Part shown: one piece after another, positions 5,683-52,500 of the stretch
Numbering within the stretch: position 1 is the first letter of the stretch
Layout: the number at the start of each line of letters is the position of its first letter
Virus record (IMG/VR): IMGVR_UViG_3300017527_000160
Span: 1 to 64,000 of that record
Source: a virus
Strand: one strand, 5' to 3'
Length of the DNA stretch: 64,000 bases
Translations under genes and position numbers: made by a program
Notes under the pieces: model-generated
What the model saw: the letters and a program-made list of their open reading frames with translations, nothing else
Databases searched by the model: none
Told to the model about the DNA's origin: nothing

Positions 5683-6194
5683 TAAAGTTACTAGATATCC
5701 AGAACAAGGTTGTTATACCTACAGAGCATTGTCAAACTATCAAATGGCTCAAAGTCATACAGGATAAGTTTCCAGATGACTACATGAAATTATATGCTTA
5801 CATTTTCTACATGGCATGTCCTGGAGAAGCTAATCCTTACTTCAACCTTGTAATGGATCTTCGAGAGGAGACAGTGATCCAAGACATCGAAGTTAACAGA
5901 GATTTATTAGAAGAAGATGAAGTGATAGAGGCTGTGGAAAAAGCAACTAAGCTTTATGAAACACCTACTGTACGAGCGTACAAAGGTATCACTACCATGT
6001 TGGATAACATCACGGAGTATATGGAAACGACGAAACCTACTGCCGGTAGGGATGGAAATCTTCCAGCTATGATACGATTGGCTAAAGATTTTGATGATAT
6101 ACGTCAGTCTTATAAAGGTGTGGCAAAAGACTTAGCCGCAGAACAAGAGTCTCAGGTTCGTGGTGGACAGAACTTAGGATATGATCAAATATAA
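5679..6194 (+). CDS. Conserved protein directly upstream of terminase, possible small terminase subunit
   Basis: A 171-residue acidic, mostly helical protein. Key features are VVIPTEHC near the start, FPDDYMKLYAYIFYMACP, KLYETPTVRAYKGITTMLDNITEYM, and TAGRDGNLPAMIRLAKDFDDIRQSYKG. From memory, this pattern is highly conserved immediately before TerL in crAss-like phages. Position and size fit a small terminase subunit, but no HTH was recognised. Its stop overlaps the TerL start by one base (TAATG), so the two are very likely co-translated. Confidence 0.85.
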   Translation: MIKLLDIQNKVVIPTEHCQTIKWLKVIQDKFPDDYMKLYAYIFYMACPGEANPYFNLVMDLREETVIQDIEVNRDLLEEDEVIEAVEKATKLYETPTVRAYKGITTMLDNITEYMETTKPTAGRDGNLPAMIRLAKDFDDIRQSYKGVAKDLAAEQESQVRGGQNLGYDQI

Positions 6195-8398
6195 TGGAGA
6201 TACTAGACTTTCATAGACTGATACCTACGTACGATAACGGAACGTGGACAGAAACAGAGTTCACTGACCTGCAAGAGTTCCGTGATTTTGTTAAGAGTAC
6301 TTTTAGAGAACCCGGTAAGTATGAGTTCGATGAGACATCAGAATTATTTAATGCACAGGCCCGTCTGTTTAAATCACAAGGTGAAGCCTATTGCTTATCT
6401 GCTTTCAGAAGCAAAGACTTCATTAACTACTGGGATCTGGAGAAGCGCAAGTCTCGCGTTGGATGTATCTTCAAGAACAACGGTAAGGTTTGGTACTTAC
6501 CTCGTGACTATTATTTTTGGATTAATTTCCTTCCTATCTACGACAAGATCAAGAAAGACTTTGCCTTTGCGCAAGTATGGGATGTACAGTTACATATGGC
6601 TCTCTATGAGGAGTTAGCTGAACTTCATTACAAGCATGCGAGTATATTTAAGAAACGGCAGATAGCTTCGTCTTATTTTCACATGGGGAAACTGATCAAC
6701 AGGATCTGGTTTGAACCAGGAGCAATACTTAAGATGGGTGCATCCCTAAAGGATTTCATTAACCTTGCTGGATCTTGGAAGTTCTTGGAAGAGTACCGTG
6801 CATTTCTGAATGCGAACACTGCATGGTATCGACCGATGAATCCAGGTAAGGTATTAGAGTGGCAACAGAAGATTGAAGTAACTCAGGGTGGTAGAAAGAA
6901 AGATGTGGGTCTCAAAGGAATGATCACAGGTATGTCATTCGAGCAGAGTGATACAAAAGGTGTCGGTGGACCTTGTACAATCTTCTTCTATGAGGAGGGT
7001 GGTGTTGCAAGAACCGCTGATAAAACTTTCGAGTTTATCCGTCCTGCAATGCAAGCAGGAGATATTACCACAGGGCTGTTTATTATTGCAGGTTCTGTAG
7101 GTAAGCTTAAGGATGCTGGACCACTGAAAGACTTTACATATAATCCAGAAGCCAATGATATCTACGCAGTGGATACAGATCTTATCGATGAGAAGCGTAC
7201 TAAAGGAAAGAGCGGATTGTTTATTCCTGAACAATGGGGTATGCCTCCATATATCGATGAGCATGGTAACTCTCAAGTTGAACAAGCTCTTGCTTCACTA
7301 GAAGCTAAATTCGAGAAGTGGAAGAAAGAGTTATCACCAGAACGTTATCAGATACGTATCTCACAGCATCCTAGAAACATCAAGGAAGGATTCGCCCACA
7401 GGGAGGAGTCTAAGTTTCCAATGAGTTTAGTTACACATCAGAAACGTGAGATCGAAGAAAAGATGTATCCGTTTGAACTGATAGATCTCTCAGAAGATTT
7501 CGCAGGGAACCTTGTGGTAAAGAAGACTACTAAACCGCCTATCACTGATTTCCCAGTCAAGCCTAACATGGAGGATAAGACGGGAACCATAGTAGTATGG
7601 GAACGCCCGGGTGATAATCCTGAACATGGTGAGCATTACGCATCGATAGATCCCGTGTCAGAGGGAAAGACAACTACCTCTGATTCACTTTGTTCTATTT
7701 ATGTTTACAGGTCAGCTACTCAAGTGAAGCGTTACACTGAAGATGGTATAGAGAACTTTGTAGAGGGTGATAAGATTGTTGCTGCTTGGTGTGGTAGATT
7801 CGATGACATCAACAAGACACACGATCGCTTACGTATGATTATCGAGTGGTATAATGCACAGACCTTGATTGAGAATAACATCTCGCTGTTCATTCAGTAT
7901 ATGATCAAGATGAGAAAGCAGAAGTACTTGATCCCAAAGAACCAGGTTATATTCCTGAAGGAAGCTCAAGCAAACAAGACAGTATACCAAGACTACGGTT
8001 GGAAGAATACAGGTACTCTCTTCAAGAACCATATGCTGAACTATCTTATTGAGTGGCTTAAAGAAGTTGTTGAAGAAGACATCGATGACTTAGGTGTTAT
8101 CCAGAAGAAGCACTACGGGATTCGCAGGTTACCTGATATGATGGCATTGATTGAAATGGAACACTATGATGGTGTTGTCAATGTCGATAGATTGGTATCT
8201 TTGGCAGCGCTGATTGCGTTCGTTAAAGTACGAGAATCTAACGCTCCACGACCGGTCAAGGTAGAAAATGAAATAGGTAATGGCTTGGAAAAGTCGGAAA
8301 ATTTGTATAAATTAAAGAGTGGTGCCTTCAAGCATGTTGGGAGATCTAATAAGACTCAATCAACTAAACGTAGGTCGCCATTTAAACGTATTCGCTAG
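6194..8398 (+). CDS. terL: Terminase large subunit
   Basis: A 734-residue DNA-packaging motor and headful nuclease. The ATPase part has a deviant Walker A (R155-Q-I-A-S-S, with no classical GKS/T) and a Walker B of C-T-I-F-F-Y-E267-E268 type. The nuclease domain begins with ASIDPVSEG (D486 as first metal ligand), passes LIENNISLFIQYM, and ends with VNVDRLVSLAALIAFVK (D665). The whole reads like crAss-like TerL. It would work with the portal encoded immediately downstream. The stop is TAG and the portal ATG is the next codon in the same frame, so readthrough would fuse the two. The C-terminal basic tail (KRRSPFKRIR) is typical. Confidence 0.93.
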   Translation: MEILDFHRLIPTYDNGTWTETEFTDLQEFRDFVKSTFREPGKYEFDETSELFNAQARLFKSQGEAYCLSAFRSKDFINYWDLEKRKSRVGCIFKNNGKVWYLPRDYYFWINFLPIYDKIKKDFAFAQVWDVQLHMALYEELAELHYKHASIFKKRQIASSYFHMGKLINRIWFEPGAILKMGASLKDFINLAGSWKFLEEYRAFLNANTAWYRPMNPGKVLEWQQKIEVTQGGRKKDVGLKGMITGMSFEQSDTKGVGGPCTIFFYEEGGVARTADKTFEFIRPAMQAGDITTGLFIIAGSVGKLKDAGPLKDFTYNPEANDIYAVDTDLIDEKRTKGKSGLFIPEQWGMPPYIDEHGNSQVEQALASLEAKFEKWKKELSPERYQIRISQHPRNIKEGFAHREESKFPMSLVTHQKREIEEKMYPFELIDLSEDFAGNLVVKKTTKPPITDFPVKPNMEDKTGTIVVWERPGDNPEHGEHYASIDPVSEGKTTTSDSLCSIYVYRSATQVKRYTEDGIENFVEGDKIVAAWCGRFDDINKTHDRLRMIIEWYNAQTLIENNISLFIQYMIKMRKQKYLIPKNQVIFLKEAQANKTVYQDYGWKNTGTLFKNHMLNYLIEWLKEVVEEDIDDLGVIQKKHYGIRRLPDMMALIEMEHYDGVVNVDRLVSLAALIAFVKVRESNAPRPVKVENEIGNGLEKSENLYKLKSGAFKHVGRSNKTQSTKRRSPFKRIR

Positions 8399-11173
8399 AT
8401 GGAAATATATAACGCACTGGACTTAAAGTCTGGTAAAAAAACTAGAAGTAATAGGCTGTGGAATATATCACAACCTTTACAATTCCTACCTGTAGATGAG
8501 AAGGATGCCGATTGGGCTTCGTGGAATATGGATTGGCTTGAGTGGAACGGATTGAAACAACTCCGTAAGAACTCTCGAAAGCTAATGAAGAACTACAAGC
8601 TTGCTGCAGGTATTATTGATAAGCGTGATTATATCGCTGAGGATAACAACGAGATGAAAGATGTCGTTGCTCAATTAGCAGAAGATAGCGAGATGGAATC
8701 ACTGGAGCTGAAGTTCTATCCAATCATCCCTAACGTAGTCGATACACTGACTGCCGAGTTCGCTAAAAGAAACAAGAGAGTTACATTCCGTGCAGTAGAT
8801 GAATACACGCACAATGAGATCATAACTCGTAAGAGGGAGGAGATTGAAGATGTACTCGTGAAATGGGCTGAGTCAAAGCTTATGGAAGAGATGCTTGCAC
8901 AAGGGGCTGACCCAGAGGATCCAGAGATCCAGCAAATGATGCAAGAGAAAATGTCTCCTGAAAATTTAAAGACATTACCAGAGATCCAAGATTTCTATAG
9001 TAAGGACTATGAGGTTCTTGCGGAGAAGTGGGCTTCTAAGCAACACATCATCGATGAAGAACGTTTCAGAATGGATGAGCTTGAGGAAAGAGGTTTCCGT
9101 GATAAGCTTATTACTGATAGAGAGTTCTGGCATATGCATATGATGGAGGATGACTATGAGGTTGAGTTATGGAATCCTGTACTTACATTTTATCATAAGT
9201 CACCTGATGCACGATACATATCACAAGCTAACTATGTTGGTAAAGTTGAGATGATGACTGCGGCAGATGTTATTGACAAATACGGATGGAAGATGAACGA
9301 AGACCAACTACTTGGACTTCAACAAGCTTATCCTGTATCAGCTGCGGGTTACGCTATAGGTGGACAGCAGAATGATGGTTCTTACTATGATGCTACAAAG
9401 TCACATGAATGGAATACAAACTCACCTTCTTTACAGATGCGTCAGTACTTATCTGTGAACTCACAGAATGTACATAATAGTAATGATGTTGTCGAATGGG
9501 TATTAGGTGAGTCAGAAGACTATACAGATAACACTCAGATGTTGAGAGTTACTACAGCTTACTGGAAATCACAACGAAGAATCGGTCACTTGACTAAGGT
9601 TAGTGATGGTGGTAAGGTTACGAGTGAGATCATATCTGAAGAATATAAAATAACTGACAAGCCTGTATACAATACAAGCTTGATAAAGAATAAGACTGCA
9701 CAGAACTTATTGTTTGGGGAACACATTGAATGGGTTTGGATTAACCACTCTTGGGGTGGAATTAAAATCGGTCCTAACCAACCAACGTTCATAGGTATTG
9801 AAAACAATACTGGTGTAAATCCGATATACTTAGGTATCAATCAGAATCAAATGAAGCCGTTGAAGTTTCAGTTCAAAGGAGATAATACTCAATATGGTTC
9901 TAAACTTCCGGTAGAAGGGAGAATATTTTCAGACAGGAACACGAAGTCATCGTCATTGGTTGATTCAATGAAACCTTTCCAAATAGGATTCAACATTGTG
10001 AACAATCAGATCTCAGATATCCTTATCGATGAAATAGGTACTGTAGTGATGCTTGATCAAAACGCACTACCTAAGCACTCACTTGGTGAGGATTGGGGTA
10101 AAGGGAATCTTGCTAAAGCTTATGTAGCTATGAAGGATTTCAGCATGCTTCCTTTAGATGGTTCTATAACTAATACAGAAAGCCCATTGAATGGACAACA
10201 CTTCCAGCAGTTAGATCTATCACAGACACAACGTCTGATGTCTAGGATACAATTAGCACAGTTCTTTAAGCAACAAGCTTATGAACAGGTTGGTGTTAAT
10301 GCTCAAAGAATGGGACAACAGTTAGGAGCAAATACTACAGCCACAGAAGTGGAACAAACTCAAGTAGGTTCTCATGCACAAACGGAGATGCATTTCGTTG
10401 AACATTGTGATCACTTAATGCCTAGAGTACACCAAATGAGAACTGACCTGGCACAGTGGTATCATTCTACTAAACCTTCTATTCGTTTACAACACATGAC
10501 ATCTATGGATGAGCGTGTGAACTTTGAGATGAACGGGGAAGACTTATTACTAAAAGATATCAATTGTTACTGTACAACTAAAGCTAACCACAGGAAGATG
10601 TTAGAACAGATGCAACAATTGTCTGCGAATAACAATACTACTGGGGCATCTATATATGATCTCGGTAAGATCATGCAAGCTGATTCTATGGGAACTCTTA
10701 ACAGCGCACTTAAGTCTGTTGAGATGAAGAATGAAAAAGCTAAAGCAGATGAAAGAGCACAGGCACAACAAATGCAACAAGAAGCACTTGCCATGGCTGA
10801 GAAAGAGAAACAAATGCAAATCGATCACGATGCATCAGAAGCTGAGAAAGATAGACGTAAGGATATCCTTGTGGCTGAGATCAAGGCTAGTGGATTTGGT
10901 GCTATGCAAGATATGAATGAGAATAAGCAGTCTGACTTTGTGGATAACATGGAGAAGATAAAACGTACTGAATCATATCAGGATACAACTAACATCCAGA
11001 GAAGTAAGGTTGATCAGAACCGATCGCAACATGCCGATAAGATGGGCATAAAGCGTGAGGAGATGGCATTGAAAAGAGAGCAAAACGCAACTCAATTAGC
11101 TATTGCTAAGGAGAATAAGAATAAGTATGATGCTCCGAAAAACACTGGAACAAAAGATAAGAAAAAATCATAG
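8399..11173 (+). CDS. Portal protein
   Basis: A 924-residue protein in the expected place after TerL. The N-terminal part (RKNSRKLMKNYKLAAGIID, LELKFYPIIPNVVDTLTAEFAKRNKRVTFRAVDE) matches the crAss-like portal pattern: a wing region that starts with a long helical region. The centre holds the stem and crown part (VDSMKPFQIGFNIVNNQISDILIDEIGTVVMLDQNALPK, TATEVEQTQVGSHAQTEMHFVEHCDHLMPRVHQM). The C-terminal 180 residues are a long coiled coil rich in Gln, Met, Lys and Glu. Twelve copies would form the DNA channel. It abuts TerL with no gap. Confidence 0.92.
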   Translation: MEIYNALDLKSGKKTRSNRLWNISQPLQFLPVDEKDADWASWNMDWLEWNGLKQLRKNSRKLMKNYKLAAGIIDKRDYIAEDNNEMKDVVAQLAEDSEMESLELKFYPIIPNVVDTLTAEFAKRNKRVTFRAVDEYTHNEIITRKREEIEDVLVKWAESKLMEEMLAQGADPEDPEIQQMMQEKMSPENLKTLPEIQDFYSKDYEVLAEKWASKQHIIDEERFRMDELEERGFRDKLITDREFWHMHMMEDDYEVELWNPVLTFYHKSPDARYISQANYVGKVEMMTAADVIDKYGWKMNEDQLLGLQQAYPVSAAGYAIGGQQNDGSYYDATKSHEWNTNSPSLQMRQYLSVNSQNVHNSNDVVEWVLGESEDYTDNTQMLRVTTAYWKSQRRIGHLTKVSDGGKVTSEIISEEYKITDKPVYNTSLIKNKTAQNLLFGEHIEWVWINHSWGGIKIGPNQPTFIGIENNTGVNPIYLGINQNQMKPLKFQFKGDNTQYGSKLPVEGRIFSDRNTKSSSLVDSMKPFQIGFNIVNNQISDILIDEIGTVVMLDQNALPKHSLGEDWGKGNLAKAYVAMKDFSMLPLDGSITNTESPLNGQHFQQLDLSQTQRLMSRIQLAQFFKQQAYEQVGVNAQRMGQQLGANTTATEVEQTQVGSHAQTEMHFVEHCDHLMPRVHQMRTDLAQWYHSTKPSIRLQHMTSMDERVNFEMNGEDLLLKDINCYCTTKANHRKMLEQMQQLSANNNTTGASIYDLGKIMQADSMGTLNSALKSVEMKNEKAKADERAQAQQMQQEALAMAEKEKQMQIDHDASEAEKDRRKDILVAEIKASGFGAMQDMNENKQSDFVDNMEKIKRTESYQDTTNIQRSKVDQNRSQHADKMGIKREEMALKREQNATQLAIAKENKNKYDAPKNTGTKDKKKS

Positions 11174-11213
11174 CCATATAATGGTAAAATCTTCACTTGG
11201 ATATGAAAAAATT

Positions 11214-11245
11214 CAAACTTATCATGTTTATTTTTAATAAGTTTG
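11214..11245 (+). repeat. Inverted repeat before the scaffold gene
   Basis: CAAACTTAT (11214-11222) and ATAAGTTTG (11237-11245) form a perfect 9-bp stem with a 14-base loop. No T tract follows, so a terminator is doubtful. TATATTAAT at 11249-11257 lies just after it and resembles the phage -7 box, but no good TTTG is found at the right spacing. The arrangement resembles the inverted repeat at 16900-16932, so an operator or attenuator is possible. Confidence 0.45.
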
Positions 11246-11288
11246 TTGTATATTAATATTAGTTAGTCAATAACAAAACCAACAATAA

Positions 11289-12644
11289 ATGAGTAAAGAA
11301 GCAACAACTAGTGTGCAGAGTGTCGATGTCGACATAGATGCATTATTAGGAACAGGTGCTGACAACGTGATGCTAGCAGGGGAACCTGCAGTAGCTCCTT
11401 CCGCAAAAGAAGGGGATGAAAAGAAAAGTCTTTTCTCACCGATGTCCACTGACACATCGTTCCTTGACAAAGCGCCTAAACCCGCTAACGAAACAAAAAC
11501 TCCAGAGGAGGAAGCAGCTGAAAAGCTTGCCGCAGAAGATGCTGAGAAAGAAAGATTAGCAGCTGAAGCACAAAAGACTCCCGAGGAATTAGCAGCTGAG
11601 AAAGAAGCAGCAGAGGCTTTGGCTTTAGAGCCAGACCCCTTAGATTTATCAGGTGGTGGAGATCCAGTGGTTCCGGAACCAGACGATAAGAACAAAGGTG
11701 GTAGACCTTCCGCTTTAGTAACAGCAGCTAAGAAAATGATTACTGATGGGATCCTTACTCCTTTTGTCAACGACAAGGGTGAAGATGAACCAATCGATAA
11801 TTATACTGCTGAAGATTTTCAGGAGCTTATATCAGCTAACATGAAGAATCAAGAGAGTAAATTAGTAGATGAATTGCCTAAGCAGTTTATAGACCAATTG
11901 CCTCCTGAGATGCAACAAGCTTACGAGTATGTTGCTAATGGTGGAACTGATATGAAAGGTATGTTCCAAGCACTCGCAGCTTCTAACGAAGTAAGAGATC
12001 TTGACATCACTCATGAGAATGGACAGAAGCAGGCTGTAAGAGCTTACTTAAACGCTACCAACTTTGGTACACCCGAAGAGATCGAAGATAGAATCTACGC
12101 TCTTGAAGATAGAGGTGACCTGGAGAAGGAAGCAGGAGTATTTAAACCGAAACTGGATGCTATGCAAGAGCAGATCGTTCAGAAGAGAGTTTCAGATCAA
12201 GCAGCTTCAGCTAAGCAAAGGCAGGAACAATCTCAACAGTATATTGAGAATGTATATAAAACGTTAGAAACAGGGAAGCTAAACGGTATAGACCTAGACA
12301 ACAAGACACAGAATATGTTATATGCTGGTCTGGTACAGTCTAACTATCCATCGATTAGCGGAAAGCAAACAAATATGTTGGGACATCTCCTAGAGAAGTA
12401 CCAGTGGGTAGAACCGAGACATGATTTGATAGCAGAAGCGTTATGGTTACTTCAAGACCCTGAAGGATACAGAGGGAGTCTAGGAGCCAATGCAGAGAAA
12501 GCTGCAACGGAAAAGACCATGAGAACACTGAAGACTGAACAAGCTTCTAAGAGTGCAGCTAATACTGCTCCCGAAGAAAGCTCATCACCTTCAAGAAAAA
12601 GACCGGGGGTCAGACGACCTTCAAAGAACTTCTTCGGAAGATAA
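11289..12644 (+). CDS. Probable head scaffold or internal capsid assembly protein
   Basis: A 451-residue acidic protein located between portal and major capsid genes, the usual place for a scaffold. Residues 65-125 are Ala/Glu/Lys-rich coiled coil (EEEAAEKLAAEDAEKERLAAEA), residues 125-150 are Pro/Gly-rich linker, and the C-terminal half is helical with a basic end (SPSRKRPGVRRPSKNFFGR), typical of scaffolds that touch the capsid shell. No protease motif was seen. The AACCAAC leader at 11277-11283 precedes the start. Function is inferred from position and composition. Confidence 0.8.
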   Translation: MSKEATTSVQSVDVDIDALLGTGADNVMLAGEPAVAPSAKEGDEKKSLFSPMSTDTSFLDKAPKPANETKTPEEEAAEKLAAEDAEKERLAAEAQKTPEELAAEKEAAEALALEPDPLDLSGGGDPVVPEPDDKNKGGRPSALVTAAKKMITDGILTPFVNDKGEDEPIDNYTAEDFQELISANMKNQESKLVDELPKQFIDQLPPEMQQAYEYVANGGTDMKGMFQALAASNEVRDLDITHENGQKQAVRAYLNATNFGTPEEIEDRIYALEDRGDLEKEAGVFKPKLDAMQEQIVQKRVSDQAASAKQRQEQSQQYIENVYKTLETGKLNGIDLDNKTQNMLYAGLVQSNYPSISGKQTNMLGHLLEKYQWVEPRHDLIAEALWLLQDPEGYRGSLGANAEKAATEKTMRTLKTEQASKSAANTAPEESSSPSRKRPGVRRPSKNFFGR

Positions 12645-12691
12645 TAAAGTAGAAAACAAATAAATAAATAATAACTAAAACCCGTTACAAA

Positions 12692-14320
12692 ATGAGTACA
12701 CCAGTATTTAACAATGGCTTGTTTCTAAGAGATACCTCTTACAACGCAAGTTCACACGTTGATTCTTACCATTTAGCTAATATGCTAAAGGACTCTGAAC
12801 CTACGGACATGGGACCAGTGGATATCTGGGCTATGACGCAGAAGGTTGAGATGCCTCTTTATCAGATGTCTAACTTTGGAGGAAAGAACGTAATCGAAGT
12901 CGATAATATCCGTGGAGAGTGGAAATGGCAAACGCCTATTTCACAAGATCTTCCTTATATTATGGAAGATGTAGAACCATTGAACCTACAAAAAGGTATC
13001 GACGGAACTACTTTCAAAATCAAATTGAACAAGCGTGAGTTTGGTCATGGAGACATCATTACTTATGACAAGTATAATGGTGTTGAACTTATCGTATCTG
13101 CAGAAGATGATATCTTACCAATTGGTGATGGTTTTATCTACACAGTAGGTTTGATAAACAATGACTCTTACAAATTCTTAGACAGTAAGTTTTTGAAGTC
13201 AGGAACTAAATTCTTTAGAAAAGGTTCTGCAAGAGGTGAGTATGGAGAACGTTTCTCTGATATCTCTACTAAAAGTGGTTACAGAGAATTCTATAACTAC
13301 GTAGGTGGAGCTGAAGCTCACGTACATTATTCTATCTCTTCGAGAGCTGACATGGCTATCAAAGGTGGAATGAACGCAGATGGTACAGTACCAGTTACTG
13401 AGATCTGGAGAAATTTTGATAAATCTATGGATCCATCTGTATCTTCTATTGAAGGAATGGTTGAATCAATGGGTAAAGACTACGTTAAGAGAGCAATCGC
13501 TAACGGAGACTTATCAAGAAGTTTCTTAACTAGTTTAGAAGCTGCTCACTTGAGCAAGATCGCTACCGATATTGAGACTTACCTTATGTGGGGTCACGGT
13601 GGTAGAGTTCGTCAAGACGGACCAGATGACGTAAGGTTATCAGTAGGTCTTTGGAAACAATTGGATAACTCTTTCAAAAGAGTATACAACAAGTCTTCTT
13701 TCAACCTTGAGTTGTTTAGAGCTGAGTTGTATAACTTCTACGCAGGTAGAGTTGACTTCCAAGGTCCAGATCCACAAAGAAAAATCGTTATCCAAACAGG
13801 AATGGGTGGTATGCGAATGGTTAATGAAGCTATCAAACGTGAGGCTGCAGGTGAGAACTTGACAATCAACGCTGGCGAGAAGCAAGGTATTGGAGCAATC
13901 AAAGGACAAGGGATGAACCTTGGATTTGGATATGCTTACACTAGCTATGTGATCCCGTTCTTAGCGAACGTTGAGTTTGTAATTAACCCGGCATTTGATA
14001 ACGTTCACACGAACGATATTGAAAACCCAATCATTGATGGACATCCATTATCTTCTTACTCTTTCATTATCTTTGATATCACTGACAACACAAATGATAA
14101 CATCTATCAGTTGAAGTTGAAATGGGATTCTCAGTTGAAATGGTGGTACCAAAATGGTACAATGGATTATATGGGACGTTCTCAAGGATTCCAATCTTCT
14201 GGTCAGTTCAACGGATACAGAGTTTATATGACTCAATGTATGCCAGCGATCTGGGTGAAAGATCCAACTAAAGTATTGAAAATTGTTATGAGAAACCCGT
14301 TAACGGGAGGATCATTCTAA
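12692..14320 (+). CDS. Major capsid protein (crAss-like, HK97-fold expected)
   Basis: A 542-residue protein. Diagnostic stretches include MNLGFGYAYTSYVIPFLANVEFVINPAFDN, NPIIDGHPLSSYSFIIFDI, WDSQLKWWYQNGTMDYMGRSQGF and the end WVKDPTKVLKIVMRNPLTGG, which match the C-terminal pattern I remember for crAss-like capsid proteins. It would form the icosahedral shell. High expression is supported by a strong terminator 20 bases after its stop and by an A-rich leader. It is slightly longer than the approximately 490 residues typical of human-gut crAss phages, with extra sequence near residues 130-190. Confidence 0.9.
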   Translation: MSTPVFNNGLFLRDTSYNASSHVDSYHLANMLKDSEPTDMGPVDIWAMTQKVEMPLYQMSNFGGKNVIEVDNIRGEWKWQTPISQDLPYIMEDVEPLNLQKGIDGTTFKIKLNKREFGHGDIITYDKYNGVELIVSAEDDILPIGDGFIYTVGLINNDSYKFLDSKFLKSGTKFFRKGSARGEYGERFSDISTKSGYREFYNYVGGAEAHVHYSISSRADMAIKGGMNADGTVPVTEIWRNFDKSMDPSVSSIEGMVESMGKDYVKRAIANGDLSRSFLTSLEAAHLSKIATDIETYLMWGHGGRVRQDGPDDVRLSVGLWKQLDNSFKRVYNKSSFNLELFRAELYNFYAGRVDFQGPDPQRKIVIQTGMGGMRMVNEAIKREAAGENLTINAGEKQGIGAIKGQGMNLGFGYAYTSYVIPFLANVEFVINPAFDNVHTNDIENPIIDGHPLSSYSFIIFDITDNTNDNIYQLKLKWDSQLKWWYQNGTMDYMGRSQGFQSSGQFNGYRVYMTQCMPAIWVKDPTKVLKIVMRNPLTGGSF

Positions 14321-18308: not shown

Positions 18309-18348
18309 AAAGGAGAGTTGAGTGTATACTCTTCTCTCCTTTTTTTTT
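18309..18348 (+). terminator. Very strong Rho-independent terminator
   Basis: AAAGGAGAG (18309-18317) pairs with CTCTCCTTT (18334-18342). An inner GAGT/ACTC stem extends the hairpin, and a run of Ts follows to 18348. It ends the single-gene unit upstream. Confidence 0.92.
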
Positions 18349-18366
18349 ATCTTTAAAGAAAAAACG

Positions 18367-18915
18367 ATGAGACATGTACTGAGCCTTGAAGCTCCCAAAA
18401 CTTTAAATTGTTCAATTTTAAGAGTGATTGACACCTCTGTGTATAGCCCGGATGTTCCCGTGGAATGCCCTATACTAAACGTAACTTTACCAGGGTTTAA
18501 CTCTTCGGTAGAGCTAGGTGAATCAGATATTGCTCCAGGATTCTCACTTGTACTTACAGCTTGTAACCTCGAAGTACAGACGACTGGATGTGGTACAACT
18601 TACAATAGTTTACCTGATGGAGTATACATCCTAAAGTATAGTGTCAGTCCTAATGATCAAGTGTATGTTGAGTATAACCATCTACGTACAACTAAACTAC
18701 GTATAAGATACCAGAAGATTCTATGTGAGCTAGATATAGCTAACTGTGAGCCTTCAGCTGCTGTAAAGAAGAAGATGGCTTTACTTAAAGATATTGACAT
18801 GTACATCCAAGCTGCTGAAGCAAAGGTTGAAACTTGCCTTGATCCAGCAAAAGGAATGCAACTTTATACTTATGCTAAAGATCTTTTAGCTAAATTTGAT
18901 TGCAAGACTTGTTAA
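18367..18915 (+). CDS. Conserved structural protein of Bacteroidota phages
   Basis: A 182-residue protein. ATG 18367 is chosen because the in-frame start at 18322 lies inside the terminator. The N-terminal half is beta-rich (ECPILNVTLPGF, TACNLEVQTTGCGTTYNSLPDGVYILKYSVSPNDQVYVEYNHLRTTKL), the C-terminal half has helices and conserved Cys residues (LCELDIANCEPS, CLDPAKGMQLYTYAKDLL). From memory, very similar proteins occur in tail regions of many Bacteroidota phages, usually followed by a tiny zinc-ribbon protein, as here. Role not established, probably an appendage chaperone or structural part. Confidence 0.8.
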   Translation: MRHVLSLEAPKTLNCSILRVIDTSVYSPDVPVECPILNVTLPGFNSSVELGESDIAPGFSLVLTACNLEVQTTGCGTTYNSLPDGVYILKYSVSPNDQVYVEYNHLRTTKLRIRYQKILCELDIANCEPSAAVKKKMALLKDIDMYIQAAEAKVETCLDPAKGMQLYTYAKDLLAKFDCKTC

Positions 18916-19085: not shown

Positions 19086-21269
19086 ATGGCTCATAGCTTA
19101 ACCATCACATCTACTTCGTTTCCGGACGGAGGTTTGATTCCAGTATCACATAAGAATGCTACATCGTGTGGTGAAGCGAACATCAGCCCTCAATTATCCT
19201 GGACTACAGGAGGTGATCTGCTACCCAGTATGGTAGAAAAGTATGAGATGGGTGTATGGGATCCTAATTCAGGAAACTTCCTTCATTGGCGCGTGGAAGG
19301 CATAGACCCTACTCAATTATCTATCGCAGAAAATGGTGCTTGGATAGGCACACCTATAATCACTCCGTCAGGATGGGGGACAGGTGATGCTGCTAACGGT
19401 TGGAACGGACCGTGTGCTCAGAGTTCGGGTGCTAATGTTTATAATATCCAGGTGAGAGCTTATATCTTACCTGAGTATCAAGACTTTCTCAAGGACGCTA
19501 CTGCAAAACATGGTGTAGAAACAGTTGAGTCACCTATATATACTTTTATAGATAATAATATTAACGTATCTCCACCGCCTACAATAGCTGATTGTGATCA
19601 ACTAGGATGTGATCCAGGTTCAGAACTTGTGGATGAGAAGTGTCAGACCATAACTTCAATACCAGTTACTATAGGTGCTACTGTATATACTGCTGCTGCA
19701 GGAGATACTAGTCTTGATTACGGTAAGAGTGGTACACGATTCTACGAAGATGCTGATGCTTATATCTTTCCTCTTAATGGTGATGATGCTACATCTGAAC
19801 TTTTTGATAATGATGGTGCGGGTATAATATTACCCTATACTGTAATCAATACAGACTTACCACCTTGGGATCACGCTGGAGTTTCACTACTTGAAGGGCG
19901 ATTGAATATTGCAGGACTCTGGACTACTGAGCCTGGTATAGGTATGCCAACCAATGAATGGATTGGTTTTAGTACATGTATCACAGTGCCTTCAACAGGT
20001 AAATACTCTATAGGTCTTGGTGCTGATAATAGAATGAGATTTAGTTTGAATGGTGTATTGATTGCACACTTCGATACTACTATCGATAAGAACCATAAGT
20101 ACTGGCATGTTATTGAGATGAACCTCAACGAAGGTCTTAACATCATAGAGATGGAAGGATACAATAGTGGTAGTAATGCTGCCTTTGGTGCTGAAATTTA
20201 TAATACGGATATTGCTACACTAAAGCTTTTAGCTTCAGAAGCAGCTTTAGAACCATATATAGAATGGTCAACTAGAGATAGAATCGGGAACGACTTCAAT
20301 GTAGGTGAGGTTTCAGGATATACTTGTCCAGAAGGAACTGCATACGATAGTTGTGCAGGTGGTCAATGTACTTCGATAACTTATAGCGATCCTACTGCTC
20401 AAGCTTGCTGTTGGTTAATAGAGAATTGCAAAGATCCTGAAGAAACATATCTTATACATATGGATGCAGGAGAGACTGAGGTTATATATAACCAATCAGT
20501 ATATGCCTTTGGTGGACACGCAATCTTATTAAATAAGTGCTTCACAGTAATTGAATTAGCACTATGTCCGATACCTGATCTAGCAGATGTAACAGTTACT
20601 GCAACACATGGTGTTGATAATTGTATGGCATGTGATCCATCGATTAAATTAGAATCATGTTTGAATCCAGGAGAGTTTACATATGTTTCAATGGATGGTG
20701 ATCTTATTCTAATTGAAGGTAACATATATGAACTTGATCAGTTAGAAGGATGTCAAATATATGTAGGAACAGATTCAGAACATCCTCCTAGTAAAACTGA
20801 TGTTATTGTTGTTACTGATTATGAAGCAGATGACTGCTTAGTTTGTATACCATGTTATGAGTTTAGAAACTGTGACACGGGTGTTGCAATCACTGTAAGA
20901 TTCGCAGAGGGTTTCTCTCCTAATGAAGATGATTTCTTTGTGTATGGATTAGCAGGAGACCCTGCTTTAGAAGACATATGCTGGCAACTTGCTGGTGAGG
21001 CTTCTTGTCCTGGTCTAGCTGATTACGAAGATGTTACTATTGTGAAAGACTATGAGTGTGCCAACTGTGAGACTTGCATACCTTACTATAAATTAACGAA
21101 TTGTATAGATCCAGAGGACATCATGTTCATCCAGTGGGGGAAACTAGCACCACCTTTAACACCAGGTACTGCTTATATATTTGACTTTACACCTAATCCT
21201 GATGAATGTTATACGGCAGAGCTGCAGTTTGGTCTTTGTCCTGATTCTGAATTGATACCTATACCTTAA
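19086..21269 (+). CDS. Large fibre/appendage protein: PEBP-like, PA14-like and Cys-repeat modules
   Basis: A 727-residue protein. Residues 1-145 resemble the PEBP/YbhB-YbcL fold: FPDGGLIPVSHKNATSCGEANISPQLSW, an exposed DPNSGNFLHWRV (D-P...H) and a WNGPCAQSSGANVY segment matching the GPCPPSGTHRY motif. Residues about 278-372 resemble a PA14-type sugar-binding domain (TVPSTGKYSIGLGADNRMRFSLNG, LNIIEMEGYNSG). From about 438 on there are four modules of 70-80 residues with the pattern (Y/W)x(L/F)xxCxxP...C...LCP...DVTV...C..C. It is probably a receptor-binding or adhesion protein. The last module is cut by a TAA and continues in another frame in the next gene. Confidence 0.78.
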   Translation: MAHSLTITSTSFPDGGLIPVSHKNATSCGEANISPQLSWTTGGDLLPSMVEKYEMGVWDPNSGNFLHWRVEGIDPTQLSIAENGAWIGTPIITPSGWGTGDAANGWNGPCAQSSGANVYNIQVRAYILPEYQDFLKDATAKHGVETVESPIYTFIDNNINVSPPPTIADCDQLGCDPGSELVDEKCQTITSIPVTIGATVYTAAAGDTSLDYGKSGTRFYEDADAYIFPLNGDDATSELFDNDGAGIILPYTVINTDLPPWDHAGVSLLEGRLNIAGLWTTEPGIGMPTNEWIGFSTCITVPSTGKYSIGLGADNRMRFSLNGVLIAHFDTTIDKNHKYWHVIEMNLNEGLNIIEMEGYNSGSNAAFGAEIYNTDIATLKLLASEAALEPYIEWSTRDRIGNDFNVGEVSGYTCPEGTAYDSCAGGQCTSITYSDPTAQACCWLIENCKDPEETYLIHMDAGETEVIYNQSVYAFGGHAILLNKCFTVIELALCPIPDLADVTVTATHGVDNCMACDPSIKLESCLNPGEFTYVSMDGDLILIEGNIYELDQLEGCQIYVGTDSEHPPSKTDVIVVTDYEADDCLVCIPCYEFRNCDTGVAITVRFAEGFSPNEDDFFVYGLAGDPALEDICWQLAGEASCPGLADYEDVTIVKDYECANCETCIPYYKLTNCIDPEDIMFIQWGKLAPPLTPGTAYIFDFTPNPDECYTAELQFGLCPDSELIPIP

Positions 21270-21279
21270 AAATACTAGT

Positions 21280-21684
21280 ATGATATACGATGAAACTAAT
21301 ATAACAGATGAGTACGTTGACTGTCCTGCATGTAATGCAGTTTGCTACAAACTCATTGATTGTATAAATGAAGCGCACCATGTTACTGTCTCTACAAGTA
21401 ATCCTGCTTTTGCAATATACGTAGGTAAAGTTATCAAATGGATTGATGAAGCAGATGCTCCTGATTTTGTAGAGCACTGTGCTACAGTAGAAGTATATGT
21501 TTGTCGTAAAGAAACTTTACCTACTCCTGACATAACAGTTATAGATTGTTATGACACTTGTGAAGAATGTCTATATGTAGAACCGGAACCAGTGGAACCA
21601 CCTATAGTAACTGGTAGAAAAGTATTACCTGGATATGATGTAGCTGATTGTGTAACCCCTTCTAAATGCGATGATTGTGAGTAA
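21280..21684 (+). CDS. Short Cys-repeat protein, apparent continuation of the fibre modules
   Basis: A 134-residue protein starting 10 bases after the fibre stop, in the +1 frame. Its first residues (DETNITDEYVDCPAC) look like the tail end of the fourth module of the upstream protein (compare VTIVKDYECANCETC), and then a full fifth module follows (CYKLIDCINEAHHVTV ... CATVEVYVCRKETLPTPDITVIDCYDTCEEC). It ends with a Pro/Glu-rich linker and CDDCE. It may be a separate subunit made by reinitiation, the product of a frameshift, or a fragment from an old indel. Confidence 0.7.
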   Translation: MIYDETNITDEYVDCPACNAVCYKLIDCINEAHHVTVSTSNPAFAIYVGKVIKWIDEADAPDFVEHCATVEVYVCRKETLPTPDITVIDCYDTCEECLYVEPEPVEPPIVTGRKVLPGYDVADCVTPSKCDDCE

Positions 21685-22135
21685 CTTTGAACAAATACAA
21701 TATCACGACAAGGTTGTCTGTGATTTTGCTGAGATGATGTATAAGAAGATGGCTTCTATACGATATGGTGTTAAATTCTGCTGTGATAAAGGTGCTGAGG
21801 CTAGTGCCTTTCGTCAAACACTAATCAAGAAAGAAGCTTTGGATCTGAATGCTATATTTAATCCTGTTATAAATAATGTAGTGCAAGGAACAGGCGGTGT
21901 ACGAATTTCTGGACCATGTAGTCAAATAGCTGTTGACTCAGGTCGAGGTGGTGGTATTATAACATATACACCTTGTGGAAGCTTTACTCCTGCGCAAATA
22001 TTATTTCCTAAAAACTACAGTGGACCTATTGAAACAATCTGTTATGAGGTTAATATTGGCTATGTAGTATCAGAACTTCCTGGTGAAGATGAACATGAGT
22101 TATCTGTTGCCTTAGAAGGTGATTGTGTAGTGTAG
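21671..22135 (+). CDS. Conserved appendage protein of Bacteroidota phages
   Basis: A 154-residue protein that overlaps the previous gene by 14 bases; a GTG at 21677 is an alternative start. Its pattern VVCDFAEMMYKKMASIRYGVKFCCD, a central GTGGVRISGPC and the beta-rich C-terminus (SGPIETICYEVNIGYVVSEL) suggest a globular helical head with a beta tail. I recall similar proteins next to fibre genes in Bacteroidota phages. No enzyme motif. It likely belongs to the same appendage as the flanking Cys-rich proteins. Confidence 0.72.
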   Translation: MIVSNFEQIQYHDKVVCDFAEMMYKKMASIRYGVKFCCDKGAEASAFRQTLIKKEALDLNAIFNPVINNVVQGTGGVRISGPCSQIAVDSGRGGGIITYTPCGSFTPAQILFPKNYSGPIETICYEVNIGYVVSELPGEDEHELSVALEGDCVV

Positions 22136-22207: not shown

Positions 22208-23752
22208 ATGAAACCTACAAACTCAAAAGAAAATGGCTGCGACCCGATCTCTAGTAACTGTGTAATATGGCAGGGACCAGACATTGATTGCATCAGTCTT
22301 TGCAAAGGAGACAGTGTTAGCACAGTGGTTAACGCATTAGCTGAAGAGCTTTGCAAACTAATGGAAATGTTCAACATTGATAACTTTGACTTATCATGTA
22401 TGAATCTTGCGGAGTGTACTCCAAAGGATTTTGTAGCACTCATCAATTTACTTATTGAAAAGATCTGTGAAGACAATGCCATTCCTACCGAAGGAGAGGT
22501 TTCTGGCGGATGTCCTGATTGTGTTGTTAACATATGTGAACTATTTCATTATCAAAATCCTCAAGGAGATACTGTTACCACTATGCAACTACAAGACTAT
22601 GTTCTTGCAATAGGGAATAGAGTGTGTACAATCGCAGGACAAATAGGAACAATCAATACTACCTTAGCTGGACATAACGTTAGAATAACAGCTTTAGAAG
22701 AAGCAGGTGACCCTACGTTTGAGTTACCTATGCTTACACCAGTATGTGTATTACCAGCAGTACCTGCTACCATGGATTTAGTATTAGCTGAAGTTGAGGC
22801 ACAGTTTTGTGCACTTAGAACAGCTACTGGAAATACTACAGCAATAACAGTAGCACTACAAGCTGCTTGTCTCGGGTTAAACGACGCGGACAAATTGCAA
22901 GGGACTGGTCTAATGAAAAATATACCAGGGTGGAATAACCCTGTAACTAACTTATCTGAATCTATAACTAACTTATGGCTCACAGTATGTGACATGAGAA
23001 ACGCAATAACGTTCATTCAAAATAACTGTTGTGATACAGGTTGCTCTGCAATTGATTTGATTATAACAGCTACATTGAATAGCCCTACAGAATTAAGACT
23101 TGACTTCTCCGGAAGCATACCTGCTAATTATCAGGATCAAGGTATAGGATCTACTATAGAAATCACTGAAACTTATGGTGGAGGTGGACCACAAACACTT
23201 AGTGGGCAGATGATCAAAGCTGCATTCGATTCAGTTCAACCTATAATAATAACACTTTCTGGTATCAATGGTGCTTTAGATCTGACTATTAAAACAACAT
23301 ACAGATTTACGGATCCTGTGTTAGAAACACTATGTGAGAACTTGATACAATCATCTGCATTAGGTACAGACACTTGTCCTGACTTAATATTTCTTTCAGA
23401 CTACGCTGCTATCAACTACGGATTTACGTGGAACGGAACTCTTCCTACGACGCTTGTTGCTGAAATATGGAATGATTCTCAAACAATATTATTACAGTCT
23501 AATGTATTAAGTGTAACTACACCATCACCTACATTTGACTTCTTCAACTTAACTCCAGGAACTACTTATAAAGTGAGACTGGTTATAGGAGGAGTACCAT
23601 GTGAATTTGAAACGATTGACACTTTATCGTATGTATGTATACCAGTAGGTGTATTAGCAACAACATTTGACTATATAACTTCTCCTGAAGGAACTACAGA
23701 CGGAACAACAATAACAGGATGGCAAGCCGTATATGATGCCGCTCATCCATAA
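22208..23752 (+). CDS. Appendage/fibre protein with C-terminal FN3-like domain
   Basis: A 514-residue Cys-rich protein. The start SSNCVIWQGPDIDCISLCKGDSVSTVVNALAEELC is, from memory, a conserved signature in Bacteroidota phage appendage proteins. The middle is helical and coiled-coil-like (GNRVCTIAGQIGTINTTLAGHNVRITALEEAG), and the C-terminus has two beta domains, the last with an FN3-type strand (PTFDFFNLTPGTTYKVRLVIGG). It probably trimerises or forms a long fibre on the virion. Its own promoter precedes it. Host recognition is plausible but unproven. Confidence 0.76.
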   Translation: MKPTNSKENGCDPISSNCVIWQGPDIDCISLCKGDSVSTVVNALAEELCKLMEMFNIDNFDLSCMNLAECTPKDFVALINLLIEKICEDNAIPTEGEVSGGCPDCVVNICELFHYQNPQGDTVTTMQLQDYVLAIGNRVCTIAGQIGTINTTLAGHNVRITALEEAGDPTFELPMLTPVCVLPAVPATMDLVLAEVEAQFCALRTATGNTTAITVALQAACLGLNDADKLQGTGLMKNIPGWNNPVTNLSESITNLWLTVCDMRNAITFIQNNCCDTGCSAIDLIITATLNSPTELRLDFSGSIPANYQDQGIGSTIEITETYGGGGPQTLSGQMIKAAFDSVQPIIITLSGINGALDLTIKTTYRFTDPVLETLCENLIQSSALGTDTCPDLIFLSDYAAINYGFTWNGTLPTTLVAEIWNDSQTILLQSNVLSVTTPSPTFDFFNLTPGTTYKVRLVIGGVPCEFETIDTLSYVCIPVGVLATTFDYITSPEGTTDGTTITGWQAVYDAAHP

Positions 23753-49508: not shown

Positions 49509-52500
49509 ATGAAGTGTACAATTGTAGGAGCTAACCAACGCGATGTGCGTGTGGTTGTCGCAGGTGATATTTTCGATTTGATGAAAGCAGGTAAGCCTGT
49601 AGATGTGAAAGCATTGTCATTGAATATGTACAACGCAATGTACGACGCAGAACAAAAGAACAACACGGAAGCCTTAGCATATGCAAGGCTTGTTCCTTTT
49701 ATGGTGCAACAGTTAATGGGTGTTGATGCAACTATCTTAAAGCATGTTGTGGAATCAAAGGTGGATCTTGGTGAACTTGCCAATACACAGATTGCTGCTC
49801 AAGATGCTGAGACAGGTTTAAAGTATGTTGAAGAATGGTTAGGTGTTCGTGAGAATGGATTGAAAGAATCATTAGCTGCTGCTCAACCAAAGAAAGCAAA
49901 AAAAAAACCTGGTAGACAAGCAAAGCTTTTTGCTGATGAGGTTGTTAAGCTTGGTGATACTGTACAAATACTTAGTGGTAAAGGTAAAGGTGAGGTAGTT
50001 ACTGTTACTGAAGACCATGGTGATAAGGTAAGATTATCCAATGGTGTACTTAGAAAAAAGACTAGAGTTAAATTGAAGGCACAAACTTCTGTGCCTGTTG
50101 CTGCTCCTGTTAAATTAACAATTCGACAAAAAGTTATAAGAAGTTTAGAGCTTGACTTGAAGCAATCAGATGAGAGCAAGTTCCCAATGTCTGCTGCTGC
50201 AAGACGTAAAGTACAAGCTCAGTTGGATCAGTTGAAAGCTGAAGAAGCTGGTAAAGCGCCTGTCAAAAAGAAAGACGGTTGGTCAAGAGAAGATATCATG
50301 GAGGATGCTCATAATCAACATCAAGCTGGTGTTGATGATTGGTATGCTAATAAGAAAAAACAAATAGCTGAGGAAGAGGCTGTTCTATCAACTGGAAGCG
50401 AAAACTTAGAAACTGGCGCACCGGAAGGTGATCCTGGTGTAGGACCGACACCTATTTCTGTTGAAGAAGTTATGGCACTGCCTGTAGAGGAGTTCACTAG
50501 ATGGTTCATCACTCACGGATTAATAAGTGGGAACGAGACTGGTTTAAATCAACGCCCTTATATAGGTGGAAGATCGCCTGCTGATTTACGAGCTGTTGTT
50601 AATAGAATTAAATTGGGTAAGACTCATAAGAAGGATGGGACTATATTGAAAAGCGTAGCTGACTTCTATGCGGACATGGCTGAGATCCAAAAGAATAATG
50701 ATGAGTTCCCGATGATTAAAGGTACTGGTGGTAAGAATGATGGACGAACAGGTTCACCACCACTTAGTGCAATTATACAAAGTGGATTGGATATGGCCAA
50801 AGGTGGTCCAGTTGATGAAGTAGATGAGGATTCAAAAGAAGAGGTAACACCTAAACCACGTAATAAGAATTATTTACAAGGAGCACTTAAGAGTGTTATC
50901 GATGGTGTTGTGAAAGCTTTCAACGCTCATGCCCCATCATGGATGACTACATCTGGAAATGAGACTGGTTATAATGTGGGTGAAGTTAGTGCAAGGATAC
51001 CTACCGCAGCAAGTAAAGCAGCTTATGCTGCACAACGTACGATCTTAAGATTGATGGAAGATGGAAACATCCAAGACAGTAAAGATCTCAAAGTTAACGG
51101 TAGGACAGGTGTATTCTTGACTGCTAAGTTTGCTGACGGTCGTATCAGAATGACTCTTACAGATAAGAACGGTGATGCTATTTTATTTGACGGTAACGAT
51201 CAGCCTGCACTGGATGGTAATCCTAGAGAATATGGTATGCGTGCCGTAGACAAATTCTTCGATAAGGAAGGTAATGTGAAGACAACAGGGAAACGTTTCA
51301 ATGAGATGGTTGATGCTTTGATTAACGCTAAGCCTCACCTTACTAGAACAAGAGCTGTGAATATTCTTAAAGCAGAGGTTGAACATATCCAAGCTGTTAG
51401 AGAATACATCAATAAGGATCAAGAGAATAACTCTCTTGAATTTTCAATAAGCGGTGGTTCTCTTGGTTATATCCAAGTAGGATTTTCACCTAAAGAACTT
51501 ACATCAGTTAGTAAACTGAGCGATAAGGTTACAATGAAGCTGTCCACTAAAGCCGACAACATCGGTGAGGAAGGGCATGTGTATGCCACTTCGGATGAGA
51601 TGGAAGGTGACTGGATTCCTATCGAACGACCAGGTCTTAGAGATACACCTTTTGCTGATGTTGTTGAATCATTATTGTTTGATGAGAACTTAACAGATAA
51701 GGATGGTAAGCTCTTGAATGCTGTAGATAGAGCAAAGCACATAGATAAATATGTCGGTACGAACAAGGAGAGTGAGATACTATTTGATTATGATATCGGT
51801 ACTAAGAAAGTTAAACGACTTGTTATAGGTAATACTGTGATCATCGATGTTGAGAAAGGTATCAGAGATTTAGAGGTGGGTAAGATTGCTTATAAGCAGT
51901 TGTTAGCAAAGAATAACAAGGGTACTAGTTTCCCAACACTTAAGATGCATGTGAATGCAGATGCTTTAGCTAGAAGAGATTTCATGTCTGTAAGTATAGC
52001 GGACGGTGTTGTAACTACAGAAGGGAAAAATACCAGAGTGCATATGGCTGAGCAAGGGTTCATGATCCAGACCCCTGATGTTGCATCTGACGGTATGATC
52101 AGAAAGGTTAATGCATACTTCACTTTTAAGTTAAGTGAGAAAGGTGACCAAGCGTTAAATGGTAAAGCTGTTGCTGAAGAAGAAGCAAAGATTGCTGAAC
52201 AGAATACTGAAGAGATTGAAGAGAACGAGGATGATGCTTGGCAGAAAGCAATGGATGCTAAGATGAAAGCGCTTCAAGATAAAAACAAACCATTGGATGA
52301 AGATGAAGATGATCGTTTATTCAGAAGCTTGGATGTAAAGAATCAGAATCGAGCAGCTACTGCTGAACAGATAAAAGAAGCTAGAGACTGGTACGAGAAA
52401 CACCCTCTTAGTAAACACATTCCGTTCAAGACAATGTTTGAACAAATGAATAAGGATGGTGTTGCTCAATGGACTGTTGAAGGAATCACTTTATTTAAAG

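What the first reader, a model, noticed from the sequence alone, without database searches (positions are those of the whole stretch)
19086..19530. PEBP-like domain at the tip of a phage fibre protein
The N-terminal 145 residues follow the YbhB/PEBP pattern (PDGG.IP, ISPQLSW, D-P...HW, GPC..SG..VY). PEBP proteins bind phosphate-containing ligands such as phospholipid head groups. In an adhesion protein this could recognise a surface lipid or phosphorylated glycan, or be reused as a structural fold.
Basis: partly seen in the sequence, partly recalled or inferred. Interest (0 to 1): 0.6.

Follow-up and report, generated by a model that had tools for sequence, protein, structure and literature searches.

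The report
Lipid-binding-protein fold on phage adhesin
A crAss-like phage carries a PEBP domain (a fold best known from cellular phosphate- and lipid-head-group-binding proteins) at the outer end of an exchangeable surface protein, and the domain belongs to a virus-only branch of the PEBP family that is also built into structural proteins of other tailed phages, so it is probably a host-binding module, although its ligand is unknown.

Summary
Residues 1-158 of the 727-aa ORF at 19086-21269 form a PEBP domain: Pfam PF01161 is just over its cut-off, hhalign against cellular PEBPs gives 99%, and Foldseek's eight best PDB matches to an AlphaFold model are all PEBPs (YbhB, YbcL, Rv2140c, CT736). 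The window belongs to a crAss-like phage. The ORF fills a variable slot between two conserved virion genes. About 30 relatives carry proteins there with a shared C-terminal part, cysteine repeats and different N-terminal modules (Ycf48-like BNR propeller, PKD/Ig, PA14-like). Only the window carries PEBP. Its closest counterpart starts directly at the PA14-like module, so the PEBP domain is a clean N-terminal addition. Unexpectedly, the domain is not a captured host YbhB. It sits in a distinct viral PEBP clade (support 100/98) found in T4-like baseplate-hub-type proteins, sheath-bearing myophages, Ig-repeat proteins and a subtilase fusion. The clade keeps the anion-pocket residues. The window copy keeps Asp70, His86, Gly108 and Tyr120 but has Pro111-Pro112 changed to Ala-Gln and His118 to Asn. 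Most likely it is a swappable receptor-binding cap on a virion adhesin. Ligand binding is inferred; tail versus head location is unresolved.

The parts
19086..19559 (+). PEBP domain, residues 1-158 of the 727-aa ORF
   Evidence: PF01161; hhalign 99% vs cellular PEBPs; AlphaFold/Foldseek; viral clade
19086..21269 (+). 727-aa modular virion adhesin: PEBP, PA14-like module, cysteine-rich repeats
   Evidence: slot comparison
19563..20405 (+). PA14-like beta module (res 160-440), shared with L005 and L013 and with 44 viral loci
   Evidence: weak PF07691 (below cut-off); AlphaFold model too poor to use
20406..21269 (+). cysteine-rich repeats of the type C..C..Y.L.NC (res 441-727), the stalk-like repeats of the slot proteins
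21280..21684 (+). ORF continuing the repeats; in most relatives fused to the gene upstream
   Evidence: matches residues 469-584 of the single L005 ORF
21671..22135 (+). conserved C-terminal (virion-anchor-like) part of the slot protein, here a separate ORF
   Evidence: residues ~10-65 conserved in 19 of the slot loci
18322..18915 (+). conserved virion gene bounding the slot upstream (ATG at 18367)
   Evidence: 51-63% identity across ten relatives
22208..23752 (+). conserved N-terminus, coiled-coil-like protein bounding the slot downstream
   Evidence: weak fibritin-type match
12692..14320 (+). crAss-like major capsid protein (identifies the phage)
   Evidence: PF23898 E 1.9e-32; phrog_11589

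Best explanation
The domain is a true PEBP fold used as an exchangeable N-terminal cap of a virion surface protein of a crAss-like phage. The protein's conserved C-terminal part (encoded by the downstream ORFs in this phage) holds it to the particle, cysteine-rich repeats make a stalk, and the outer end carries modules that differ from phage to phage; here they are PA14-like plus PEBP. The PEBP module comes from a viral PEBP lineage that has moved between tailed phages and been attached to different structural proteins. Its most likely job is to bind an anionic or phosphorylated group on the host surface through the conserved Asp-His-Tyr pocket, or with a retuned rim, and so help attachment. 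Shown: fold, domain boundary, slot variability, viral clade. Inferred: surface exposure, outer position, ligand binding, role in adsorption.
For: PEBP identity. crAss-like virion context. Exchangeable slot with conserved flanks and C-terminus and varied N-terminal domains of adhesive type. The closest counterpart, L005, begins at the PA14-like module, so PEBP is an N-terminal addition. The domain has higher GC than almost all same-size stretches of the phage's large structural genes (43.9%, top 2%). The same domain occurs in T4-like hub-type proteins, myophage proteins with sheath genes, Ig-repeat proteins and a subtilase fusion. One viral clade, support 100/98, window nested with L233/L270/L272 at 97/90. 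Core pocket residues kept.
Against: No experiment or structure shows ligand binding or particle location. The window copy has lost three pocket positions that all other aligned viral members keep (PP to AQ, His118 to Asn). None of the 35 larger relatives' records searched has PEBP, so the domain is not needed by this phage lineage. The viral clade was collected with signature patterns, which favours finding members that look alike.
Confidence: 0.62

Rival explanations
1. The PEBP fold is reused only as a structural or spacer module (like Ig or PKD domains in phage decoration proteins), with no ligand.
For: Window copy lost PP and His118 and the DPDAP loop; other caps in the slot are Ig/PKD-type; viral PEBPs lack the C-terminal helix block of cellular PEBPs; L255 joins PEBP pieces to Ig repeats.
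Against: Asp70, His86, Gly108 and Tyr120 equivalents are kept in the window and all core pocket residues in nearly all viral relatives across very different proteins, which a pure spacer would not need.
Confidence: 0.25
2. The protein is a head decoration or head fibre rather than a tail appendage.
For: The slot lies between a gene weakly like crAss001 ring protein gp35 and one weakly like gp40, where crAss001 encodes the auxiliary capsid protein and tail-hub proteins (PMC10172136); one relative in the slot matches 'Hoc-like head decoration' families.
Against: The downstream conserved gene 22208-23752 has a coiled-coil, fibritin-like stretch and begins a run of appendage-like genes; no direct evidence either way.
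Confidence: 0.3
3. A captured host YbhB/YbcL gene (a moron) fused by chance, working inside the cell.
For: YbhB/YbcL-type genes do occur as accessory genes in E. coli phages.
Against: Window domain is in a viral clade apart from YbcL and all cellular PEBPs; it is an in-frame module of a virion-type protein; the viral NGWxGPxPxxG signature was absent from 396 + 292 genomes of the phyla of L120 (a Bacteroidetes MAG) and L136 (Desmonostoc).
Confidence: 0.05

Closest known systems
PEBP family PF01161, bacterial YbhB/YbcL branch (E. coli YbhB 1fjj, YbcL 1fux, M. tuberculosis Rv2140c 4beg, Chlamydia CT736 3n08)
   Same: Fold, NISPxLSW, D(70), HW(86), GP, Y(120) positions
   Different: Fused into a virion-type protein; DPDAP loop shortened; viral 'ENGxW...NGWxGP' segment; no C-terminal helix block; window lacks PP and His118
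Viral PEBP clade found here (L092/L218, L222, L233/L247, L240, L241, L227/L269, L270, L272, L225, L255/L264)
   Same: Shared signature HWxVxxI(D/N)P...N..W...NGWxGP; 36-40% identity; virion-type carrier proteins
   Different: Others keep PPxG and His118; different carrier proteins (T4-like hub-type, subtilase, Ig repeats)
Modular crassvirus tail/head appendages (crAss001 gp21-gp26, gp29; BACON proteins)
   Same: Variable appendage proteins with exchangeable ligand-binding domains, described for Crassvirales (PMC10172136, PMC10136315)
   Different: No PEBP domain found in those papers; slot at another place in the gene order and no detectable sequence similarity to crAss001 appendage proteins

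Membership tests
PEBP (PF01161) | profile score over the curated cut-off | tested here: met
   24.3 vs 24 bits; viral relatives 40-69 bits
PEBP (PF01161) | PEBP fold | tested here: met
   Foldseek top eight PDB matches all PEBP, TM 0.62-0.66 by query length; the alignment given to AlphaFold contained PEBPs, so hhalign is the cleaner test
PEBP (PF01161) | anion pocket: Asp70, His86, Gly108, Gly110, Pro111-112, His118, Tyr120 | tested here: inconclusive
   Asp, His86, Gly108, Tyr kept; Gly110 to Cys, PP to AQ, His118 to Asn; pocket list from PMC8539980
PEBP (PF01161) | binding of phosphate-type ligand | not testable with these tools
   needs protein biochemistry
Crassvirales-like phage | crAss-type major capsid protein, portal and terminase | tested here: met
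   PF23898 1.9e-32; portal and TerL PHROGs
tail fibre / receptor-binding protein | location on the tail | not testable with these tools
   gene order only; no significant match to crAss001 fibre or hub proteins
exchangeable adhesin slot | conserved flanks and one conserved end, variable other end | tested here: met

The most novel reading that the evidence does not exclude
Tailed phages own a distinct virion-borne PEBP lineage, traded between unrelated phages and mounted on different structural proteins, that recognises phosphorylated or lipid head groups on the host surface: a receptor-binding chemistry not described for phages in the papers searched.
Probability: 0.35. Interest if true: 0.7.

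Novelty: new variant of a known kind. Interest (0 to 1): 0.5.

Why it matters
Receptor-binding modules of environmental crAss-like phages are almost unknown. A PEBP cap gives a concrete, testable guess at the receptor chemistry, and a defined viral PEBP clade gives a sequence handle for finding the same module in other uncultured phages. PEBP function in prokaryotes is itself poorly understood.

Tried and rejected
tblastn of the whole ORF and the domain against isolate phages: no match. Single-protein scans of viral contigs: nothing. Eight-sequence PEBP alignment: no stretch conserved enough to search with. Sequence searches of the flanking proteins against PDB and profile comparison with crAss001 proteins: no significant assignment, only weak hints of ring proteins. 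AlphaFold of the PA14-like module: mean pLDDT 41.6, not used. A combined alignment of slot proteins and PEBPs misaligned and was not used. First tree with two viral members warned of long-branch joining; the larger set resolved it. The top BFVD match (surface repeat protein of uncultured phage MedDCM-OCT-S31-C1) has a low TM-score and was not followed. Paper searches found no PEBP in phage virions.

Full report
What is there. Pfam PF01161 matches residues 26-130 at E 4.5e-5, 24.3 bits against a cut-off of 24, and it is the only PEBP match in the 99,915-base virus record that holds the window. Because that score is marginal, four further tests were made. A comparison of the single window sequence with a profile of 38 cellular PEBPs, containing no viral member, gives 99% probability. 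tblastn finds bacterial genes annotated YbhB/YbcL. The AlphaFold model (mean pLDDT 77.9) finds only PEBP structures among PDB matches with E<=0.001. And viral relatives found later score 40-69 bits with the same Pfam model. The domain is real. The AlphaFold alignment included PEBPs, so that test leans towards the fold; the profile comparison does not.

Which phage. TerL, portal and a crAss-type major capsid protein lie at 6194-14320. The closest isolate by capsid protein is Leptolyngbya phage Lbo-JY46 at 29% identity, then gut crAss-like and Cellulophaga phages. Eighty relatives with 78-90% capsid identity were taken from IMG/VR.

The slot. Between a conserved gene (18322-18915) and another (22208-23752) lies a gene whose product varies strongly among relatives, about 460-960 aa, in a gap of 1.7-3.8 kb where both flanks are seen. 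The C-terminal part matching window ORF 21671-22135 is kept in 19 loci. Cysteine-rich repeats fill the middle. The N-terminal ends differ: Ycf48-like BNR domains in four, PKD/Ig-type repeats, PA14-like modules and others. In the window this protein is split into three ORFs; a split at the same boundary occurs in L031/L032, and others in L025 and L082, so splitting recurs. In L005, the closest counterpart, the protein begins directly with the PA14-like module to which the window's PEBP domain is joined. The PEBP stretch has higher GC (43.9%) than 98% of same-size stretches in the phage's large genes. No PEBP was found in 35 larger related records. So the PEBP domain looks like a recent N-terminal addition in an exchanging adhesin-like slot.

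Where the domain comes from. It is not a plain captured host gene. A PEBP domain with the same unusual segment turned up inside a 1065-aa protein of another virus that matches the T4-like 'baseplate hub subunit and tail lysozyme' family. DNA patterns built on the shared signature then found about ten further viral PEBP-bearing loci, all confirmed by Pfam where scanned: a second T4-like hub-type protein, 840-900-aa proteins in contigs with contractile-sheath genes, one record with a gp23 capsid gene, a subtilase fusion, Ig-repeat proteins, and small stand-alone proteins. A maximum-likelihood tree puts ten viral sequences on one side of a branch (100/98) apart from 35 other PEBPs (34 cellular and the YbcL-type phage gene); the window groups with L233, L270 and L272 (97/90). 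A DNA pattern for the signature was absent from 396 and 292 genomes sampled from the phyla of a Bacteroidetes MAG (L120) and of Desmonostoc (L136). Caveat: the viral members were collected by that signature, and the window's own copy does not carry the full pattern.

Pocket. Mapped to human PEBP1, the window keeps Asp70, His86, Gly108 and Tyr120, has Phe for Trp84, loses Ala73-Pro74 with a shortened loop, and has Cys, Ala, Gln and Asn at 110, 111, 112 and 118 (pocket definition from PMC8539980). The other aligned viral members keep PP and His118, except that L225 and others vary around them. So the family probably keeps an anion site, while the window copy is altered and may have changed ligand or become structural.

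Mechanism and limits. The most likely reading is a receptor-binding cap: C-terminus at the particle, repeats as stalk, PA14-like and PEBP modules outermost. That the slot encodes a virion protein is inferred from its conserved virion neighbours. Tail versus head location is open: flanking proteins are too far from crAss001 to be assigned, with only weak matches to ring proteins gp35, gp40 and gp43 in the right order; in crAss001 the stretch between gp35 and gp40 encodes the auxiliary capsid and tail-hub proteins (PMC10172136). Ligand binding was not tested.

Novelty. PEBP proteins and modular crassvirus appendages are both known. A virion-borne viral PEBP clade, and a PEBP cap on a crAss-like adhesin, were not found in the papers searched; the library is open-access only, so this is not proof that nobody has described them.

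Noticed in passing
window 21269-21684: The slot protein is split into three ORFs in three frames; the second and third overlap by 14 bases and their homologues in L005 are one continuous ORF. Real gene splitting or an assembly frameshift cannot be told apart here.
   Followed up: partly
L018, L020, L033, L034 slot proteins: Ycf48/BNR beta-propeller domains (photosystem II assembly factor family) as N-terminal caps of the same crAss-like virion slot.
   Followed up: no
L174-L217: The PA14-like module (YWHV...FGAEIY) occurs in 44 viral loci, many crAss-like, others in different phages, including a 380-kb contig (L187).
   Followed up: partly
L225:357-2588: A viral protein fusing a subtilase (S8) domain to a viral-clade PEBP domain.
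   Followed up: no
L255, L264: PEBP pieces in swapped order within Ig-repeat proteins (the NGWxGP...Y part precedes the N-terminal part), looking like a circular permutation or two partial copies.
   Followed up: no
window 12692-14320 vs PP438436.1: Closest isolate by capsid protein is a phage of the cyanobacterium Leptolyngbya, so the host of this crAss-like lineage need not be Bacteroidota.
   Followed up: no
window 49509-61364: A single 3951-aa ORF downstream of the virion genes, not examined.
   Followed up: no
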